Below, piece by piece: positions 12,330 to 60,413 of a stretch of 64,000 nucleotides of DNA; position 1 is the first letter of the stretch, and every line of letters begins with the position of its first letter. Source of the DNA: Coemansia sp. RSA 487 (taxonomy: Eukaryota > Kickxellomycota > Kickxellomycetes > Kickxellales > Kickxellaceae); the NCBI GenBank assembly GCA_027577595.1, contig JANBRJ010000023.1:1-64000 (forward strand), given 5' to 3'. The translations under genes were made by a program, and so were the position numbers. The notes under the pieces were generated by a model. It had not been told where the DNA came from and searched no databases. It saw only the letters and a program-made list of their open reading frames with translations.

Positions 12330-12460
12330 GTGTTTTGCAAAACTAATTGAGACAAATAACAAGGATGTATGCGCGTCGAATCGTCAAAGGTTTGCGGTGG
12401 CGATAATTCATTTTGCGTTCCAAGAAAAAGTCGTCTGCGCAGATGTGGCAAGTTATTTGC
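12330..12460 (+). repeat. Left terminal inverted repeat of copy A
   Basis: Matches the reverse complement of 13215-13365, including ATTTTGCGTTCCAAGAAAA on the left against ATTTTGCATTCCAAGAAAA on the right. The first 19 bases agree exactly between the two ends. Confidence 0.75.
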
Positions 12461-12649
12461 ACTAGCCGGCGTTATATTTGCGCTTGGAGGCAAGAGGCGC
12501 AAACTGGGCTTTGTGGAGAAAGCTGTTCGCTACACGCCTATTTACTTCACACTAAAATGGATTGGCTTCTTGGTCTCGGTCTATGCTTTCAATGCGATTA
12601 GTTAACATTGATCTTAATAAAACCCAACAATCTGAAAAAACACCATTAC

Positions 12650-13049
12650 TACCTTGAACAAGAACCCAGCTGCGGGGCTGGTGCACATCAAGAAGGGCCT
12701 ATGTAAAGCATTCAACGGCCTGACTATAGCAGTATCAGCACTACACAGGCATTTGGTTGGAAAGTGCTGCCTATCAACGAGCGAAGATGAAAGAAGTGCT
12801 CTGCCACGGCCTCCTTGGGTGCACCAACGAGCCATGTATGGGCCCGTGGAAGTGAGTGGTATTCTGACTCCTCGTTCATGCATGTACAACCGAGATCTCG
12901 CAGTCGTTCTCAATTTCAGGCATATTTTCCATGGCCTTCGCGATCATAGCGAGACTCCAGAGCGCTTTTGTTGCAGTCAGTCTGCTGCTGTTGCTATCAT
13001 TGAACAGAAGTCCAAGAAGAAAAGGAAGACGGCAAGGACAAACAAATAA
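12650..13049 (+). pseudogene. Fanzor (eukaryotic TnpB-like nuclease) C-terminal remnant
   Basis: One frame ends with YNRDLAVVLNFRHIFHGLRD and a Lys/Arg-rich tail, closely matching the RuvC-III region WNRDLAAVLNFRHILHSLRQ of the intact Fanzor at 54657-56876. Just upstream but in another frame lies CHGLLGCTNEPC, matching CYGLLMCQNKKC of the Fanzor zinc finger, and before that GWKVLPINERR, matching GFKVYLLDEFR. The pieces are therefore a frameshifted, shortened C-terminal third of a Fanzor gene. DNA similarity to the intact gene across the RuvC-III block looks like roughly two thirds, so this is a different, older lineage rather than a recent copy. It is not functional as a protein. Confidence 0.75.
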
Positions 13050-13089
13050 CAACTACCACGAAATTCAGTCAAGGTTATAGCCGCGGCAA

Positions 13090-13120
13090 ATCCTAGTTCT
13101 AGGAATCCTAGCTCTAGGAT
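13090..13120 (+). other. Imperfect hairpin downstream of the Fanzor remnant (candidate guide-RNA scaffold element)
   Basis: A 31-nt inverted repeat: two 14-nt arms starting ATCCTAG and ending CTAGGAT around an AAT loop, with 12 of 14 positions pairing. The same hairpin occurs in copy B at 49569-49599 with one G-C changed to a G.T-type pair. It lies 41 nt 3' of the stop of the remnant. Whether it was ever transcribed is unknown. Confidence 0.5.
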
Positions 13121-13528
13121 AGGATGCAGTCCCTTTTGCAAGTAGATGTTCGAATGAGAGCTGAAGAGATAAACATCTGTGGCTGCTTCTAGACAGCAGT
13201 ACCAATCATGTGTTTTCCCGTTTTGCGCTGACGCATATGCCACGCCAGCAGACGCAAACGACTTTTTCTTGGAATGCAAAATGCATTATTGCCACCAAAA
13301 ACCTTTCTACCATTCGAAGCGTATACCATCCCTTCTTATTCAATGCAATTAGTTTTGCAAAACACTGAATCTAATGCTTGTTCAAGCTTCCGTCGTTTGT
13401 GCACATTTCCCACAAGAATCATGCACCCACGAATACTGATATTGCTGCACTTTTGAGAATAGTTTCTGCCTTTATGCTTTCACTTTGTGTCATCTGATCT
13501 TTCTTACTGTTTATAATCTAGTATTGCA

Positions 13529-49377: not shown

Positions 49378-49858
49378 TGTGCTGTACAAAACTAATTCTG
49401 TCGAATAAAGATGTATACACGTCTAATGGCCAAAGGTTTGTGGTGGTGATGATGTAGTTGGTTAACGTTGATCTTAACAAAACCTAACAATCTGAAGAAC
49501 AACTAAGTCATGCACTCTTTGCCAGATGTAGATATGCTGGGAGACTGTCATTCTTATAGTCGCAGCAAATCCTAGTTCTAGGAATTCTAGTTCTAGGATA
49601 GGATACAGTCCCTTTTGCAGGTAGAGGTGCTCAAATGAGAGCTGAAGAGATAAATATCTGTGACTGCTTTTTGACAATGGTACTAATAATTTGTATTTTC
49701 TATTGTGTATTTTCCTGCTTTGCACTGACGCATACGCCACGCCTGCGCAAGCAACTTTTTCTTGGAACGCAAAATGCATTATTGCCACTACAAATCTTTC
49801 ATCATTCGACGCGTATATATCTTTCCTATTTGACACAATTAGTTCTGCACAGCACAGC
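49378..49858. mobile_element. Miniature inverted-repeat element without nuclease (copy B)
   Basis: About 480 bp whose ends are inverted and match those of copy A at 12330-13365: left TGTGCTGTACAAAACTAATT, right the complement of a near-identical sequence, followed by GATGTATACACGTC and CAAAGGTTTGTGGTGG (left) matched by the right end. The right-hand internal segment 49555-49858 aligns with 13075-13365 of copy A at about 80% by eye, including the 31-nt hairpin. The segment TTAACGTTGATCTTAACAAA also matches copy A at 12602-12621. Between those two blocks copy B lacks the Fanzor remnant and most of the left internal DNA. It ends about 90 bp from the CLASP stop. No coding capacity. Confidence 0.72.
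49569..49599 (+). other. Conserved imperfect hairpin in copy B
   Basis: The 31-nt inverted repeat of copy A (13090-13120) recurs with the same arm length, AAT loop and two-base internal mismatch. One pair differs but still allows a G.U pair. Conservation in a copy without any nuclease suggests the segment matters to the element. Confidence 0.5.
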
Positions 49859-52900: not shown

Positions 52901-54060
52901 GTATCCTTGTTGCGATATGCATCTGCTGCCACCGTGCATCCCGCCAGTACCTGGGATCTGTGGAAGAAACGATGGCTGCACAATACGCGAATCTGCACGA
53001 AACCCAGATATGCGCGAACCCGGTCGCATGCCCATTGCCGATCCAATACGGGAGCTGCTTCGCATGCCGCCATAGGGTGATGACGGCATCGAGGAAAACT
53101 CTCCCGGTGGGGCCGTGATGGCGGATAGCAATGCTGGTCTATGAGGCGTGATTGCTTGAGCTTTGGCGATAATATCCTCCTGGAGCTCTGTGTGCGCATG
53201 GTATATCGTGTTCAACGCGCGCTTTGCAGCAAACCTAACAGCATCTTGATTATCGTCAAGATGCGCAAATATGTTTCCGATATAGCGTATGGCAGGGAAA
53301 TCGGGATACTGCTGAACACACGTTATCAGCCACTCAAGCACCATCTCACGGACCCTCCATGTCTTATGGCCAAACCCGCGCGTTTGTATATCGCGCTCTA
53401 ACAAGCTTGCCGAATTCCAGTTCGACGCTGAAGGTGAAATTGGTGCAGTTGGTCTAGTAGCACGCGACCAGAGTGGCGTCCCAGCCCGAGGTATGGAGCT
53501 TCCAATCCCGCTTTGCCTGTTTGGTGCTTTGATTCGTGTTGGCGACTGCGACGCTACTAGGGGCTGTCCCGTGTTCTGTATTCTGTTAAGCGACGCCCAC
53601 ATTGTTGCAAGCGTGCTTAACGCGAGCTCTCTCACTGCCATACGGCCATCGCCAAGACGGTCAAGCAGCTGTGGGGGGATAAAGTGCATCAGCGCCTTTA
53701 TGATCTGAGCATTGGAATCCCGGGCAATGTAATCGACGAGCGGCTGTATACAGCCAAGGGCTGCCTGGCAAGCAATTACTTGAGACGAACCAAGGATAGA
53801 GGCTAGCGTTGTTATTATACCCTCCAGCGCCTTTGCCTATGGACCTGTACAGCAAAATAAAGCAAAAAGCATTAGCATATCGACGACAACGTAGCTTTAT
53901 CAGTTGCATTTGGTAAAAGCTGGTGCTCACTTACAGAACCAGTAACATCGCCATGCTCGAGCGATTCCCGAAGTCTCTCTAGCACGCCGCTGCGTTTTTC
54001 GACGCCCAGTGACTGTGCACCTTGAAGCAAGCGCAGCAGCTGGTCTAGAGTTTCTGGCAT
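49946..54060 (-). CDS. STU1: CLASP family microtubule plus-end protein (Stu1/Cls1)
   Basis: CLASPs promote microtubule rescue and spindle midzone stability through TOG domains. Exon 1 is 54060-53935 (MPETLDQLLRLLQGAQSL...GDVTGS) and exon 2 is 53836-49946, phase 0 across a 98-bp intron, for 1338 residues. The N-terminal TOG/HEAT unit reads IKALMHFIPPQLLDRLGDGRMAVRELAL and RVREMVLEWLITCVQQYP. A basic Ser/Arg/Gly/Pro-rich linker (about 240-400) has several SRI and SxIP-like pieces (GSSIPRAG near the N-terminus) that may bind EB proteins. The CLASP N-terminal (TOG2) domain at about 460-680 includes EENWIQREKAICLYRGIVWG, LRTSLSSQAMGLCEDIA and LKQRMSDKSATLRQAI. A disordered Ser/Asp/Glu-rich region and a C-terminal helical domain follow. 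Full-length. Confidence 0.92.
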
Positions 54061-54656
54061 AAGGCAGACAGAAATTGATGCGTGCGCTGTTTAATTAACA
54101 CGCGTTATGATTGACAGGATACCACTCCGCTGGCTCGGCCGAAAGTAAACAAACAAGGAAAAGAAAAATATGTATCTGGAAGAGAAACACACAATAGATA
54201 GCTCGCGCTTAGTTTCTAGTTTATCCCGAATTTACGTTTGATTGGTTCTAACAATTCGTGACCTTCACAGTTCAGTCCGTCCACCACAAACTAAATCAGA
54301 CCACAGGCAGAAGGGAATTATTGACAATAGCTTGCAATACGCAAGTATACCAAATGCAGCAGTTGTTGCAGACGTGCGAGTAAAAGTATAAATTAAAGCA
54401 ATGCGAAAATGCCGAAAAGAAAACTATAAGAGTAAAATGCGCGTCACTATGAATAAAGAGCAAAGAGTAAAAGGCAAGGAAGCAGAAAAGGAGAAAAGGA
54501 GAAGATGGGAACATCCGCCATTATCCGGTGATGTCGATGACCTTCGATTACCACTAACGTGTGGCAACCGAAGCCTTGTATCTGGCATTAATTTCCGCCC
54601 AGAACGGTTCTGGACAGTTGGAGTGCTATAGCACCCAGGGAAAAGCATGGTTGATG
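54061..54656. other. Region between CLASP and Fanzor, 3' flank of the Fanzor gene
   Basis: About 600 bp. On the minus strand it is the 3' flank of the Fanzor gene; it also holds the CLASP promoter. Two perfect hairpins lie close to the Fanzor stop and are listed separately. No ORF is supported, and I found no copy of the inverted repeats seen in elements A and B. Confidence 0.5.
54599..54634 (-). other. Paired hairpins just 3' of the Fanzor stop (candidate omega-RNA segment)
   Basis: Two perfect inverted repeats lie 23-60 nt downstream of the Fanzor stop: CCAGAACGGTTCTGG (six-base stem, three-base loop) at 54599-54613 and the 12-nt palindrome GTGCTATAGCAC at 54623-54634. Guide RNAs of Fanzor proteins are known to derive from DNA next to the 3' end of the gene. 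Transcription has not been shown. Confidence 0.4.
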
Positions 54657-56876
54657 TTAAGACTGCTGCTGCGATGTCGCTGAGCGGGGCTTCTTGCTGG
54701 GCTGTGCAGAGCCACTGGCAGACCTCTTGGTGCCTCTCGCGGGTTTCTTGGTCTTTTTTGCTGGCGGAAGAATGGTGCCACGCTTAAAACGCTCAGGCCT
54801 CTTGTGTGTTTGACGCAGACTATGGAGGATATGCCTGAAATTCAATACAGCAGCAAGATCTCTGTTCCAAAACCGAGCAACAGGCTCTTTCCCGAGATAG
54901 TTAGCAGGTTTCATGCTATCTGCCACGTACTCCACACATTTTTTGTTTTGACACATTAGGAGTCCATAGCAAATAACATACTCACGCTTATTCTCTTTCG
55001 GGTAGGGCCTCGGATTTGGGACCAGCTCTTCAGGATGCACAAGCCTGTCTTCGCAGCAACCAGGACAGAAAGTCGAGGTACGGAATTCGTCCAACAGGTA
55101 CACTTTGAACCCATGCTTCCTCAACATCCTACGCATGCCTACACCCCGGATGGGCTCATGGTACTTGCACATGCCAGCAGACCAGTTTCCGAGAACCAGA
55201 ACAGGACCAGGACCAAACTGTTCACGGATAAGGTTGGCAAGGATATGGTCTGCCCTTTGGCTGTTAAGGTAGGCTGCCAGACGCAGCTGCCGATGAAGTG
55301 ATTTCTTGTTTGTTGTGCTGTTTGTCTGTGTGCAGGAATAGAACTTGTGCAGAAGGGGCCACACTTCAGCCTGGACCTCAACGAATCTCTTGAACTGATC
55401 AGGATCAACAGTGGTACATGAAACCTCAGCCAGACGCTGCTCTGCCTCAATGATGGCATTGTCAGGGTACATCTTCTTGGCTGCTTCAAGGATCTTGCGG
55501 AACTTGGTGGAGCGAGTCAGCTTGGCCTTATGATTGCGCGTAAACCGGAATAGCCATGGATTCCCAATGGAGCTGTACTCATGCATGCAGAACAGAAGGT
55601 CCCTCCTGCCTGGGTCAATCAGCACACAGTTTCCCTCCATTGCACATAGCTTGTCTTGGTCGATTGATTCAATGCACTCAAACTCGAATTCATCTTTGCC
55701 CTTGCCCCTCTTGGTCTTTGGCGTCTTGGTTGTGGCAGTACTGGCAGTGTCAAGTGTCTTGATGTTGCTGGTCTGGTCTGTGCTGTTGTTGGTTTTCTTC
55801 TTGGCCTTGCACTTCTTGAAAATCGAGATCGACACGCCATCTGTCTGAACTGAGCCCTCAAACACCTTGCCGCCCTGTTTGCTCTTGATTGCCCGGCAGT
55901 TTATGTCAAGGACCTCACCCCAAAGGTCATTCGTAAGCTTCTGTCCCTTCTTGATGCCACCAAGGAACCACTGACAGAGGACATACTTATCAATGTGGAC
56001 ATGGCATGGGATCCACTGTGTGCGAAGTGGCATGCACTGGAAGCTGCGGGACTTGTTTTGCTGGAAGAATCGAGCCAGAAGAAAGAAGGTTTTGACATGC
56101 TTGACAGGGTCACACTTGATGTCATAGTAGAGACCCTTTTCACTAGGTGCATCATTTTCATAGATGTAGAGTACTGATTGAAGATCTTTGAGCCGTTCGT
56201 AAATGTGTGCATCTAGCTCAGCTTCGACAATCTTGCCACGCTCAACACATTTCTTGGCCTTGTCTGCTGGCCCCCACACCTCGGCTCTTAGGGTATCTCG
56301 GATAGTATCAGCTGATGCGCCAGCAGCCTTGAGTTTGATCCGTTTAGCAAGTGCTTCAGTTTTAGACCTACAGAGCATGTTGACAGCTCTGCGTAGACGA
56401 TTTCCGAGGTTGTTTTTAACAGATACTAAGAATGCAGTGTGTATCTTTTGGGCTTCGTACCCAGCAACTTGAGCCATGTATGGCTGCTTTTGTTGCTTGA
56501 TATGCGACGCCTGTGCATATGTATCCCAATGTTTTGCTATGGGGGTTCGAAACTCTGCTGTGTCTGGCTGGTCACTTTCTGCTTCTGCTTTAGGTTCCTT
56601 TGTCTGCTTCCGCGCACTGCCAACAGCTGCAGTTTTTCCACCATTGACTTTCAAGATGACCTCCCTGAAAAAGGGAACACAGACATAGCGGTCGAGCTTG
56701 AAATCAATGTCCTCATGAAGCTCGTATATAAATATCCAGCGAGAAAAGTTATAAGAATGGCGAGTGTTGTAGTTTGTTGTTTTGACAAGCTTTTGAAGGG
56801 GCTGTTGGTACTTGCGGCGCCAGCTGACAGCCTGCAAAGGAACCTTGACAACACACACCTCGTCGTTGCGTGCCAT
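54657..56876 (-). CDS. Fanzor, RNA-guided DNA endonuclease related to TnpB
   Basis: Fanzors are eukaryotic relatives of TnpB/Cas12 that cut DNA guided by an omega-RNA. Starting at the ATG at 56876 the product is 739 residues (open frame continues 30 codons upstream without good protein character). N-terminal helical region, then GSVQTDGVSISIFKKC, typical of the family. RuvC-I is CVLIDPGRRDLLF (Asp421). At the usual RuvC-II strand the sequence is VLVLGNWSAGM, without the TnpB glutamate; an alternative acidic pair stands in LLDEFRTSTFCPGC (Glu597), as reported for Fanzor active sites. A zinc finger follows (Cys604, Cys607, Cys642, Cys647), then RuvC-III WNRDLAAVLNFRHIL (Asp673). The tail KKTKKPARGTKRSASG is a nuclear-import-like signal. 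No internal stop or frameshift. It lies in a 4-kb gap between CLASP and the TEA gene; flanking inverted repeats were not found. Confidence 0.88.
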   Translation of the reverse strand: MARNDEVCVVKVPLQAVSWRRKYQQPLQKLVKTTNYNTRHSYNFSRWIFIYELHEDIDFKLDRYVCVPFFREVILKVNGGKTAAVGSARKQTKEPKAEAESDQPDTAEFRTPIAKHWDTYAQASHIKQQKQPYMAQVAGYEAQKIHTAFLVSVKNNLGNRLRRAVNMLCRSKTEALAKRIKLKAAGASADTIRDTLRAEVWGPADKAKKCVERGKIVEAELDAHIYERLKDLQSVLYIYENDAPSEKGLYYDIKCDPVKHVKTFFLLARFFQQNKSRSFQCMPLRTQWIPCHVHIDKYVLCQWFLGGIKKGQKLTNDLWGEVLDINCRAIKSKQGGKVFEGSVQTDGVSISIFKKCKAKKKTNNSTDQTSNIKTLDTASTATTKTPKTKRGKGKDEFEFECIESIDQDKLCAMEGNCVLIDPGRRDLLFCMHEYSSIGNPWLFRFTRNHKAKLTRSTKFRKILEAAKKMYPDNAIIEAEQRLAEVSCTTVDPDQFKRFVEVQAEVWPLLHKFYSCTQTNSTTNKKSLHRQLRLAAYLNSQRADHILANLIREQFGPGPVLVLGNWSAGMCKYHEPIRGVGMRRMLRKHGFKVYLLDEFRTSTFCPGCCEDRLVHPEELVPNPRPYPKENKREYVICYGLLMCQNKKCVEYVADSMKPANYLGKEPVARFWNRDLAAVLNFRHILHSLRQTHKRPERFKRGTILPPAKKTKKPARGTKRSASGSAQPSKKPRSATSQQQS

Positions 56877-58155
56877 CGGAGGTGTGTGGAAACAAAAGGA
56901 AGAAATGAGGTTAAAATGAGATTTTGTAGGTTTGATAAATAATAAGAAAATATAGCTGCAATACAAGGAAAAGAACTTTTTCTCTACTCTTTGTAGTTAT
57001 TTCCTAGGGGAACATAGCTTTTTTATTCTTGCGATAGGAAGGCGAGCTCTTCTCTCCCATCCGTTTTTTTGTTTCTCGATTATTTTTTGCAGATATATCT
57101 CTTTCTTTTTATTAGATTGTATTTTTCTTTTACCAGATTGCATTTATTTTTGCGGCACATGTATCAAAGGGGAGCAGATGCAACATGGTGGGGCATGAAT
57201 GCCCTCAACAAACACACTTTCCTTTTCAACACCTCTTTCTCTTCCTTGTTTTTAACTGTTATCAACACTGTTCGTTTTTTCTCCTTTATTGTAATCATCT
57301 CCTATTCTCTCTTCAGACACTAGTGCTTCTATTTCTGCTAACTGATGTTTGCTTGCTCTCGCTTTTGTCATCATGTATGCATTCTTGTTTTTTGTCAGCT
57401 TTCTTTGATCTTTCCATGTCGTTTGTTTTGCAAATTAATAAATATAATCTACACCACACCTCAAGCAAAAGTTACGTTGGCAGCGTCTACACAGGACAAC
57501 TATACAAACACTACAACTGTGTTTGTTAAAAAGTATGATAAAGAAAGCAATATCTACAGCACACAACTGCTGAGCTAGCATCTAGTGATGGATGGTGTGC
57601 TGGCTAGAAAACTGGTGGGCTTTCCATATGAGCGGATAATATACTGTGTAGCCAATGTTTATTCTATTTGGCCTTTAAATATTAGTTCATTCTCTAATTC
57701 CATTTATTCTATAAAACAATAAAAGACAATGATGCATACTTGCTGTTTCTACAAACGTTACAAGTTCATAATATCTCGGTGTCATGTCATGGGTAAAAGA
57801 AACAAGCATTGTTATAAATAAAAATCTTGACAGAACTGAAGTTTCTCATTTATTTATTTGATAAAATATTGGCTCACCACTGTATTACCACAGGCTGTGG
57901 GGGAATCGGCAGGCGACTTTGACGCAAAGTTTCTTGGTCTTTGGCTTTACGCAATGACGCTTGCGCTGCTTCCCATTGTTTGCAACCACGCTGCTTGTTG
58001 CCTCTTCGCTGATCCACGATCGAAAACAACATTTGTGATGCTTATACGCCAATCGACCACTTTGGCCACTGTGTTGCGGGTTCAAACACGATTCATATAT
58101 TATACGCGGAAAAAAACATTTGCTCACTCCTGCATTAAAAGAGAGAAACGTTGGC
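56877..58155. other. Region between Fanzor and the TEA gene
   Basis: About 1.28 kb of AT- and T-rich DNA. It holds the Fanzor promoter (minus strand) and the 3' end of the TEA gene. A minus-strand frame at 57885-58127 (80 codons) is basic and Cys-containing and could be a last exon of the TEA gene, since its upstream stop overlaps a good donor CATG/GTGAGC at 58159-58154, but I cannot match an acceptor. Nothing else is recognised. Confidence 0.4.
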
Positions 58156-60413
58156 TCACCATGGTAGATAGTGCTCGAACATTGAATACCAGTCGCAGTT
58201 GCCGCTGCTCTGTGGGAGTGATGAAACTTCCGGATTCTCGTGTTCTCTGCGGCTGCTTATATCGGGGCAGCTGTAGGCGTGGGAGAGGCCCACGAGCTTG
58301 CTGACCCAATCAACTACCAAAGCACCCTCTGCACTATCAATACATCCCGCTGCTTCTCCCAGGTCTGTGGACTCGCTGGTGGGCAGCCCAGTGCTGTGGC
58401 CGTCTTTGGCTGCCAGTATTGGCGAGGAGCTGTCGTTAAGACAGCTACTGCCGCACGCAACCACCGTCATATCGCTTTCCTTGCTCGAGGAGCGCTTGCT
58501 TGGCGTGCACGCAGAATCCTTTGCCATGCTTTTTGAAGCGATTCCGCATTGGCCTCTGGAGACAGTTTTGTTGCGTGGGCGGGGCCGTGGGTTTTCCTTC
58601 CTGAAAGCGTCTGCACCCCTTTTTGGTTGCTGGCTAAGAATTGGGACATTTGCAGCACCACCAGCACAGATATCGTTTTGCGACTGCGCTGGCATCGCCA
58701 CCTCATTGGTTTGTGTATCGCACGGGCCATCCGCTAGACTCGCTGCTTCATTCTTGCTTTCCAACTCGTGCGATTTCAAGGAAACAGTTGCATTCACATC
58801 TTCTGCAGACGGTGAGATCTTGGTCAGGTCCAAATCCGCCATCTCCCTGTTGATCCCGTTGAATGCTGGTAGATCTTGAAACCAATTCCCTGTCACACCA
58901 GGCATACATGTTGCTTCCTGGGTGTACTGCGGCGTGTGCATCGACATTATGCTGTCAAAGCCGTTCTCCGCATAGTACCAGGAAAGAGCCTCGGCGAGAA
59001 GGTCAGTGTTGCAATTGGTGGGGATATCAGTTATTGCAGCCTGCTTCATCGGCGCGGTAGCGGCGATGGAGTCAGCTGTAGAAATATATGAATGTCCGAG
59101 GTTGTTGTGCACAAGCTCATTCGGAAAGCACGATGAGGCTCCTGAAGCAGTAGAAAATGCTGACACCGTGCCTGTCGGAGCTGGCGTTGCATGTTCGCTG
59201 CTGAGAGAGAGCGGGTTGATCTGCGAGCCAGCTTTGAATCCAGTGGTAGCCAAAAGATCAGCACAGGCTGCTTGTTCGGTACTGTGTGATGTATTGCCAT
59301 CTGCCAGGCCCTCGTATCCTCCGATTGCTGCAATTGTTGCCATCATAAAAACAGCCGCTGTCGAATCAGCACTGTCTTCGGCAGCTTCGGGCGCAATGTC
59401 GTATGTCTCAGAGGACAGCTGGCTAAAGGGCAGCTCACACGGCGGCACCATCATTGATGGCTGCTGGATCATCGACTCTTGAGACGCAAACGATGCGCTT
59501 TGCGACATAAGCGCATCCCCAAAAACTGAGTGGAGCGAGTCAAAGACAGGTTTCTCATTGTGACACCCAAGCAAGGCAATCTGTGAGTACTCGTCGCTAT
59601 TGGCATTTTCGCTGTCATTCATTAGCGTTGGAGATTCAATAGCATTTGGAGTCAGCAGCAGCCCAAGCGATGACCGAGGAAGCTCTGAAACGACTCTCCG
59701 GAACCGCTTTGCAGGATTGGGAAGCGACGAGGGCATGCTGTGCTTGCGCATGGCGCTAGGATCTTTGGCACTAGACATATCGGAACTGTCTTGGTATATG
59801 CCCAACGAATCGTACGAAGGAATGCTCTTATCAACATTTGGTCGGATGTTGCTTGACGAAACAGCACGGCGTGTCTTCTTTAGGTTGCCGAATCCTGTAT
59901 TTGGTCTGCTGTAGTGTAGCCGGAACACTGTTTGGATGTCCTGAAATGTCTCCATGTCCATGCTGTGGTTACTTGGCGGCTTTTTGCAGTGAACCCAAAC
60001 CTGGATGTGTGACGATACCTGCTTTCGTGCACGGAATTTGTTTGTTTTCATAAATATGTATCGCGATATGATGTCGTTCCTTCCAACAAGCTCAGTGCAA
60101 ACTCCATTGCCTTTTCTCTCTTCTATGTGGTACTTTCGCTGGCCCACTGGTGCAAACAAGCGAACAGCTATAAAAATTGAATTTCAAGATAATCGAAAAT
60201 AATAAACACATTTTTAGTAAACAAATCACAGCGTTTGAGCTGAAATAAATACAGCATTTGCAATAATACATGTAATTTTTACTTACCAGATAGAAATGCA
60301 TCCTCAACACCTATCGGCCACACTTCGTCCGTGATATCCTTTTGCAGCACAGCTCTGTGGTAGCCTATGGCATCAAATTCTGAAAGAATGGCACGCACCT
60401 CTTTGACATCCAT
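58156..60413 (-). CDS. TEA/ATTS-domain transcription factor (Tec1/AbaA/TEAD family)
   Basis: TEA factors bind CATTCC/CATTCY-type sites and control filamentation, conidiation or growth. Exon 1 is 60413-60287 (42 codons plus G) and exon 2 is 60167-58156, joined in phase 1 by a 119-bp intron inside the DNA-binding domain. The TEA domain spans about residues 29-108: DEVWPIGVEDAFLSAVRLFAP, then GQRKYHIEERKGNGV, LVGRNDIISRYIFMKTNKFR and ARKQVSSHIQVW, with the third recognition helix (KQVSSHIQVW) intact. The product is about 712 residues; the rest is Ser/Ala-rich and disordered with a basic patch PAKRFRRVV and another near PRPRNKT. The linker VCTE before LVGRN is a short insertion relative to KMYGRN of typical TEA domains. 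A donor overlapping the stop could extend the C-terminus. Confidence 0.9.

What the first reader, a model, noticed from the sequence alone, without database searches (positions are those of the whole stretch)
54657..56876. Apparently intact Fanzor RNA-guided nuclease in an early-diverging fungus
The frame has no break over 739 codons and keeps the three acidic RuvC positions (Asp in IDPGRRD, Glu in LLDEFRTS, Asp in WNRDLAAV), the four-Cys zinc finger and a basic nuclear-import-like tail. The usual RuvC-II strand carries GNWS instead of a glutamate and the alternative glutamate lies in LLDEFRTS, which is the rearranged site described for Fanzors. It stands alone between two conserved genes, without a transposase and without the inverted repeats of the fossil copies, so it may be a recent insertion of an unknown carrier or a host-retained gene.
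Basis: partly seen in the sequence, partly recalled or inferred. Interest (0 to 1): 0.85.

Follow-up and report, generated by a model that had tools for sequence, protein, structure and literature searches.

The report
Intact Fanzor nuclease family in Coemansia
A small soil fungus carries several apparently intact copies of Fanzor, a eukaryotic relative of CRISPR enzymes, riding in a decayed jumping gene with a likely guide-RNA gene beside it; this is a new example of a known kind of system.

Summary
The ORF is real: 739 codons, minus strand (ATG 56876, stop 54657). It is a Fanzor1: closest solved relatives are PpFz1 (E 6.5e-99) and SpuFz1 (E 9.7e-39), and the triad D421/E597/D673, four zinc-finger Cys and TDG motif are present. 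The host is a Coemansia.

It is not alone, and its carrier is not unknown. Four further ATG-to-stop copies and many broken ones lie in the 17.8-Mb assembly, beside a second, ~40%-identical subfamily. Of 21 right ends, 12 have a Tc1/mariner-type left end upstream and 5 keep transposase remnants. The window element is about 57882-54532.

After the stop codon lies a ~122-nt non-coding block found at 21 places, folding better than shuffles in the six copies tested and ending at GGCA in 15 of 21 (GACA here). I read it as the omegaRNA scaffold, followed by the guide. Terminal-branch dN/dS of this copy is 0.23.

Against: no excess covariation, the 5' flank is equally conserved, the structure model failed, and no empty orthologous site or RNA data were available. 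New member of a known kind; the right end without an inverted repeat is unexplained.

The parts
54657..56876 (-). Fanzor1 ORF, 739 aa; RuvC triad D421, E597, D673; zinc-finger Cys 604, 607, 642, 647; TDG at 345-347
54532..54653 (-). conserved 3' non-coding block, candidate omegaRNA (reRNA) scaffold; ends GACA in this copy, GGCA in 15 of 21 places
54512..54531 (-). presumed guide: the flanking sequence directly after the right end (20 nt marked; true length unknown)
   Evidence: inference from the sharp right end and the published Fanzor layout
57644..57882 (-). remnant of the Tc1/mariner-type carrier: left end CAGTGGTGAGCCAAT preceded by TA (57884-57883), transposase deleted, inner right repeat CATTGGCTACACAG followed by TA
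56877..57641 (-). 5' non-coding region of the Fanzor unit, shared with other copies
58005..58164 (-). a second Tc1-type end fragment, just left of the element, preceded by TA; it supplies the last two codons and the stop of the neighbouring TEA-domain gene
58156..60159 (-). TEA-domain transcription-factor gene (partial frame), 3' end replaced by the Tc1-type end: EHYLPW* against Q[GR]A[SGD]* in five aligned relatives

Best explanation
This is one member of a multi-copy Fanzor1 family that spread in Coemansia inside a Tc1/mariner-type carrier. In this copy the carrier's transposase has been deleted, leaving its left end. The ORF encodes an RNA-guided DNA nuclease. The ~122-nt block directly after the stop codon is most likely the omegaRNA scaffold, and the host sequence right of the element is read as the guide, so each insertion makes a guide against its own site. 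Such a nuclease would cut the same site where it lacks the element, next to a short TAM (the left flank is usually TA), and repair from the occupied copy would restore or spread the element. Shown: family membership, intact active-site residues, copy family, purifying selection, shared left and right boundaries, transposase remnants, conserved 3' block with better-than-shuffled folding. Inferred: transcription and binding of the RNA, guide use, cleavage, TAM, and the copy-keeping role.
For: Homology to two biochemically active Fanzor1 enzymes with solved structures; triad spacing matches SpuFz1 D383/E541/D606 named in the papers (spacing counted by me on the printed alignment). Published Fanzor and Fanzor1 signatures met. 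Five ATG-to-stop copies at separate loci. Pairwise dN/dS 0.16-0.30 in 15 of 15 pairs of six copies; terminal-branch dN/dS 0.23 for the window copy, 23 synonymous and 19 nonsynonymous changes, binomial p 3.3e-6. Scaffold at 21 places, exact GGCA end in 15 of 21, right flanks without detectable likeness to any other in 15 of 21. Fold z-scores -2.5 to -5.4 in the six of 21 copies tested. Tc1-type left end upstream of 12 of 21 right ends, transposase remnants in 5 of 21, HTH_Tnp_Tc3_2 match E 6e-10; ORF-less copy C6 keeps left end plus scaffold. Layout agrees with SpuFz1, where a 3' ncRNA of scaffold plus 14-15 nt guide was sequenced (passage).
Against: No excess covariation in the proposed RNA structure (260 of 500 shuffles at least as high). 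The 245 nt before the ATG is as conserved as the scaffold (singleton rates 0.027 and 0.035 per site). The covariance model found no counterpart in the second subfamily or in L017. The structure model failed (mean pLDDT 44). The window copy carries GACA where 15 of 21 have GGCA, breaking one pair of the closing helix. The right end lacks the carrier's inverted repeat beyond CATTGG and is not followed by TA, so ordinary Tc1-type transposition of the whole unit is not shown. Left flank is TA in 7 of the 10 Fanzor-linked left ends that I read. No RNA-seq, no empty orthologous site.
Confidence: 0.75

Rival explanations
1. The copy is kept by the host for its own purpose (domesticated gene), independent of the mobile element.
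For: Terminal-branch dN/dS is 0.23 in the window copy and 0.23-0.48 in the five others, while no stop-free full match to the carrier's 165-aa transposase piece was found other than the query's own locus (64 pieces).
Against: Five intact and many broken dispersed copies, each with its own flank, look like a mobile family. Terminal branches may include time spent in mobile ancestors. No syntenic orthologue could be tested. Relatives known outside Coemansia in the searches are few.
Confidence: 0.12
2. A dead copy whose frame is intact by chance of age; the family no longer cuts or moves.
For: Transposase remnants all look broken in the pieces seen; this copy has a changed right-end motif; other copies show stops, frameshift or truncation (L013, L015, L016).
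Against: 739 codons without a break, all catalytic and zinc-finger residues kept, nonsynonymous changes far below the neutral expectation on its own branch.
Confidence: 0.13
3. The conserved 3' block is only a 3' UTR or terminal transposase-binding site and not a guide-RNA scaffold.
For: No covariation signal; similar conservation of the 5' flank.
Against: Position, length and three-stem fold agree with published Fanzor1 guide RNAs (passages); conserved through a sharp end at which flanks become unrelated; kept with the left end in an ORF-less copy.
Confidence: 0.15
4. It is a TnpB or an unrelated RuvC protein rather than a Fanzor.
For: No Pfam family passed in this copy's scan, and the PF07282 genome search did not list this locus.
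Against: Only Fanzor1 chains matched in the PDB sequence search up to E 1; DPG, alternative Glu and TDG present.
Confidence: 0.01

Closest known systems
PpFz1, Fanzor1 of Parasitella parasitica (PDB 9cf0-9cf3)
   Same: Best sequence match over almost the whole protein (E 6.5e-99), same triad and zinc finger.
   Different: The ~106-residue stretch of PpFz1 between the two aligned parts (chain 990-1095) is lacking here; it fits the cyclophilin-binding RuvC insertion (FRI) described in the paper (passages; that it is the FRI is my inference). TAM of this protein unknown; PpFz1 reads ATN.
SpuFz1 / SPu-1 element of Spizellomyces punctatus (PDB 8gkh)
   Same: Fanzor1, single ORF followed by a conserved 3' non-coding block, many copies and ORF-less 'ghost' copies in one chytrid genome (passages; E 9.7e-39).
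   Different: SPu-1 has 30-33-bp terminal inverted repeats at both ends; here the left end is Tc1-type and the right end shares only CATTGG with it.
Fanzor1-bearing Tc/mariner elements (Bao and Jurka 2013: PGv-1, PUl-1, PUl-4)
   Same: Fanzor1 with or without a mariner-type transposase, TA at the flank (section 7 read).
   Different: Those elements have matching inverted repeats and TA duplications; here the right end lacks both.
Second Fanzor subfamily in the same genome (L023, L025-L029, L031-L032 and others)
   Same: Fanzor1-like, ~36-45% identical, near Tc1-type (DDE_3) transposase matches at 15 loci by comparing.
   Different: Long inverted repeats at both ends and another 3' region; the scaffold model does not match it.

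Membership tests
Fanzor1 | Published Fanzor/TnpB motif D-X(125,275)-[TS][TS]XX-[C4 zinc finger]-X(5,50)-RD | tested here: met
   D421, T600-S601, C604/C607/C642/C647, R672-D673; motif as quoted in the abstract passage of PMC3627910
Fanzor1 | DPG at RuvC-I and the catalytic Glu six residues before the zinc finger (E-alt) | tested here: met
   D421-P-G; E597 with six residues before C604; definition from PMC10711439 passages
Fanzor1 | TDG motif in the WED domain | tested here: met
   T345-D346-G347; definition from PMC10711439 passage
Fanzor1 | Sequence homology to verified Fanzor1 enzymes | tested here: met
   PpFz1 6.5e-99, SpuFz1 9.7e-39; no other chain up to E 1
Fanzor1 | Triad meets in one RuvC site in a structure of this protein | tested here: inconclusive
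   AlphaFold2 model too poor (pLDDT 44); only by alignment to SpuFz1
Fanzor1 | omegaRNA from the 3' end: scaffold plus host-derived guide | tested here: inconclusive
   Conserved block, sharp end, fold z -2.5 to -5.4; no covariation excess; no RNA data
Fanzor1 | RNA-guided, TAM-dependent DNA cleavage | not testable with these tools
   needs biochemistry
Tc1/mariner transposon | Tc1-type transposase in the element | tested here: met
   remnants in 5 of 21 loci, HTH_Tnp_Tc3_2 E 6e-10; absent from the window copy itself
Tc1/mariner transposon | Matching terminal inverted repeats at both ends of the Fanzor-bearing unit | tested here: not met
   right end shares only CATTGG with the left end; the stand-alone carrier copy L064 does have both repeats
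Tc1/mariner transposon | TA duplication at both flanks | tested here: not met
   TA at left in 7 of 10 read; right flank variable after GGCA

The most novel reading that the evidence does not exclude
The unit spreads with unequal ends: a Tc1-type left end after TA, and a right end defined by the guide-RNA scaffold instead of an inverted repeat. The nuclease itself would then open the target (TAM plus guide match) and the element would be copied in by repair, a homing-like spread no longer needing its own transposase, which looks dead genome-wide while the nuclease stays under selection.
Probability: 0.13. Interest if true: 0.7.

Novelty: new member of a known kind. Interest (0 to 1): 0.4.

Why it matters
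It gives a lineage (Kickxellomycotina) with several intact, selected Fanzor1 copies, a candidate guide RNA and matched broken and ORF-less copies in one small genome. That makes a good natural test of what Fanzors do for their carriers: nuclease kept while the linked transposase decays. If the unequal-ended unit really moves, it would bear directly on whether the nuclease itself drives spread.

Tried and rejected
Structure prediction from ten aligned sequences gave pLDDT 44 and pTM 0.29 and was not used; no fold search was run on it. Pfam gave no passing family for this protein. The covariance model R1 found the known copies and nothing convincing in the second subfamily or L017. Covariation counts did not exceed shuffles. 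I looked for a Tc1-type right repeat in the 1.5 kb right of all 21 right ends: none with up to 3 mismatches. I considered a longer true right end, because 5 of 21 right flanks share a unit of about 200 nt that also occurs at two places without the scaffold; not settled. I looked for the lost TEA-gene codons right of the element by pattern and found only an unrelated match at 54024. A guide-directed targeting test by genome search for each guide was not done. Rfam was not searched. Fanzor with Coemansia and with Kickxell: no paper (the held PMC library only).

Full report
Observation. The frame 56876-54657 lies on the minus strand and has 739 codons from ATG to stop. In the PDB sequence search only two distinct sequences matched up to E 1: Parasitella parasitica Fanzor1 (E 6.5e-99; query 7-521 and 528-699) and Spizellomyces punctatus Fanzor1 (E 9.7e-39). 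The protein meets the published motif of Bao and Jurka (PMC3627910, abstract passage), the DPG and alternative-Glu signature and the Fanzor1 TDG motif of PMC10711439 (passages): D421, E597, D673, C604, C607, C642, C647, T345-D346-G347. The SpuFz1 triad named in PMC10432273 and PMC11423790 (passages) has the same spacing as the aligned residues, by my count on the alignment. A structure model was attempted and failed (mean pLDDT 44), so the three-dimensional claim rests on homology. The stretch of PpFz1 that I take for its FRI domain (about 106 residues) is absent here.

Host. Protein relatives at 87-91% identity are from Coemansia sp. RSA 1813, 1843 and 1646, and the neighbouring TEA-domain protein is 100% identical to one of Coemansia sp. 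RSA 1646. The window is thus from that strain or a close one (Kickxellomycotina). Outside Coemansia the two searches (7995 candidates scored in each) listed a Gilbertella protein and two unnamed ones.

Copies. The assembly (17,787,467 bases, 184 contigs) has 70 matching pieces, a lower bound since 61 of 204 candidates were scored. Seven near-full-length or nearly so copies are 84-91% identical (L010-L016). Of these L010, L011, L012 and L014 run from an ATG at the usual place to the stop; L013 is open but its usual ATG is out of frame; L015 has one TAG; L016's first part is separate. All intact ones keep the triad; L012 reads LLEEFHTS and L010 LLDEFRSS, with the Glu kept. A second subfamily at about 36-45% identity has many copies.

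Selection. Six copies (window, L010-L014) give pairwise dN/dS of 0.16-0.30 in 15 of 15 pairs, dS 0.18-0.39 (L013 pairs over 606 codons). Counting changes unique to one copy over 730 codons gives dN/dS 0.23 for the window copy (23 synonymous, 19 nonsynonymous), and 0.45, 0.48, 0.43, 0.23, 0.25 for the others. Binomial tests against neutral site numbers give p 3.3e-6, 0.012, 0.025, 0.004, 1.5e-6 and 1.4e-11, uncorrected and without a mutation-bias model. These branches may include time before the present insertions.

Right end. A block of about 122 nt after the stop codon recurs at 21 places (22 rows, one being a 21-nt self-match of a hairpin). It ends in GGCA exactly at 15 of 21; L043 (window) and L054 have GACA, L048 GGTA, L050 GGCC, L053 a shifted GGCT, and L057 is degenerate (some ends are extrapolated from the alignment). 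Fifteen of 21 right flanks have no likeness to any other at E 1e-4; the other six are L045, L046, L048, L051, L055 and L056. In the window the block is 54653-54532. In six of the 21 copies the minimum free energy is below dinucleotide shuffles with z -4.6, -2.5, -5.4, -4.2, -3.1 and -2.6 (0, 5, 0, 0, 1, 4 of 200 shuffles as good). The fold has two hairpins, a long third stem and a closing TGCC/GGCA helix. In the 19 copies aligned (L057 and L059 left out), 95.2% of cells pair, against 32-44% when partners are slid, but covariation is not above shuffles (260 of 500). Mean divergence of the block over L009-L013 is 0.077, but unique changes per site are 0.035 in the block, 0.027 in the 245 nt before the ATG, 0.064 at synonymous and 0.019 at nonsynonymous sites and 0.076 in the carrier remnant among L009-L012, so the block is constrained but not more than the 5' flank.

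Left end and carrier. In the window the element begins at 57882, CAGTGGTGAGCCAAT after TA, and runs through a 239-nt remnant to an inner CATTGGCTACACAG at 57644. Locus L061 (C54) has in this position a Tc1-type transposase remnant (HTH_Tnp_Tc3_2, E 6e-10), followed by ATTGGCTAACCACTGTA and the Fanzor 5' region. Stand-alone carrier copies exist: L064 has CAGTGGTGAGCCGATG and CATTGGCACACCACTG at its ends. L065 has the carrier followed by the Fanzor 5' region. A left end stands upstream of 12 of 21 right ends: C23, C101, C66, C113, C140 and C20, C77, C71, C37, C162, C4, C6. Transposase remnants lie in 5 of 21 (C20, C71, C4, C37, C54). C6 (L059) keeps left end and scaffold with no Fanzor frame. 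Of the ten Fanzor-linked left ends that I read, seven follow TA (window, L010, L047, L052, L057, L058, L059) and three do not (L011, L012, L045). In the 64 transposase pieces only the query's own locus covers all 165 residues without a stop; introns are not excluded.

Neighbour. The TEA-domain protein ends EHYLPW, where five aligned relatives (of 34 found) end in Q[GR]A[SGD]. The PW and the stop come from a second Tc1-type end fragment at 58164-58005, after a TA. So the mobile-element cluster entered the end of a conserved regulator's gene. I found no trace of the lost codons right of the element.

Fossils. By comparing, DDE_3 matches lie upstream on the same strand within about 4 kb at 15 second-subfamily loci; at C19 both frames are open (transposase frame 298 aa, Fanzor frame 762 aa).

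Mechanism. In SpuFz1 the 3' ncRNA has a scaffold and 14-15 nt of flank as guide (passage), and Fanzor1 scaffolds can take in the right repeat and the target duplication (passage). By analogy the GGCA-ending block is the scaffold here and the flank from 54531 the guide. The likely role is to cut unfilled sites beside a TAM and so keep or spread the element. That is inference. What does not fit a plain Tc1 element is the right end: no repeat beyond CATTGG and no TA after it. Five right flanks share one unit that also stands without scaffold at C57 and C69 after TATA or TATAT. This could be a target shared through the guide or a longer old right end; divergence did not decide.

Verdict. A real, intact-looking Fanzor1, a new member of a known kind. 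Fanzor1 in Tc/mariner carriers was described in 2013 (section 7 of PMC3627910), and PMC10432273 calls Fz1 widely spread in fungi incertae sedis (passage). No held paper names Fanzor with Coemansia or Kickxell.

Noticed in passing
window 12330-13367: Internally deleted copy of the second Fanzor subfamily with inverted repeats of about 110 nt and a remnant of the Fanzor C-terminus.
   Followed up: partly
window 49379-49855: Short ORF-less relative of the second subfamily (inverted ends plus 3' region), next to the end of the CLASP-like gene.
   Followed up: partly
window 58156-60159 and 58005-58164: TEA-domain gene whose last codons are replaced by a Tc1-type end fragment; the same EHYLPW end is in Coemansia sp. 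RSA 1646.
   Followed up: yes
G000:C19:210617-215916 (L025): Second-subfamily Fanzor with an open 762-aa frame and, upstream on the same strand, an open 298-aa frame with a DDE_3 match: candidate self-sufficient carrier.
   Followed up: no
L045, L046, L048, L051, L055 right flanks; C57:66364; C69:884: A unit of about 200 nt follows five right ends and occurs twice without the scaffold, starting after TATA or TATAT.
   Followed up: partly
L045 and L056 right flanks: Two insertions lie beside paralogous genes (about 52% identical over 314 residues), at different distances.
   Followed up: no
L017 (C57:63653-65875): A Fanzor of intermediate identity (53%) with one TAG, possibly a third subfamily; its 3' region is not matched by the scaffold model.
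   Followed up: no
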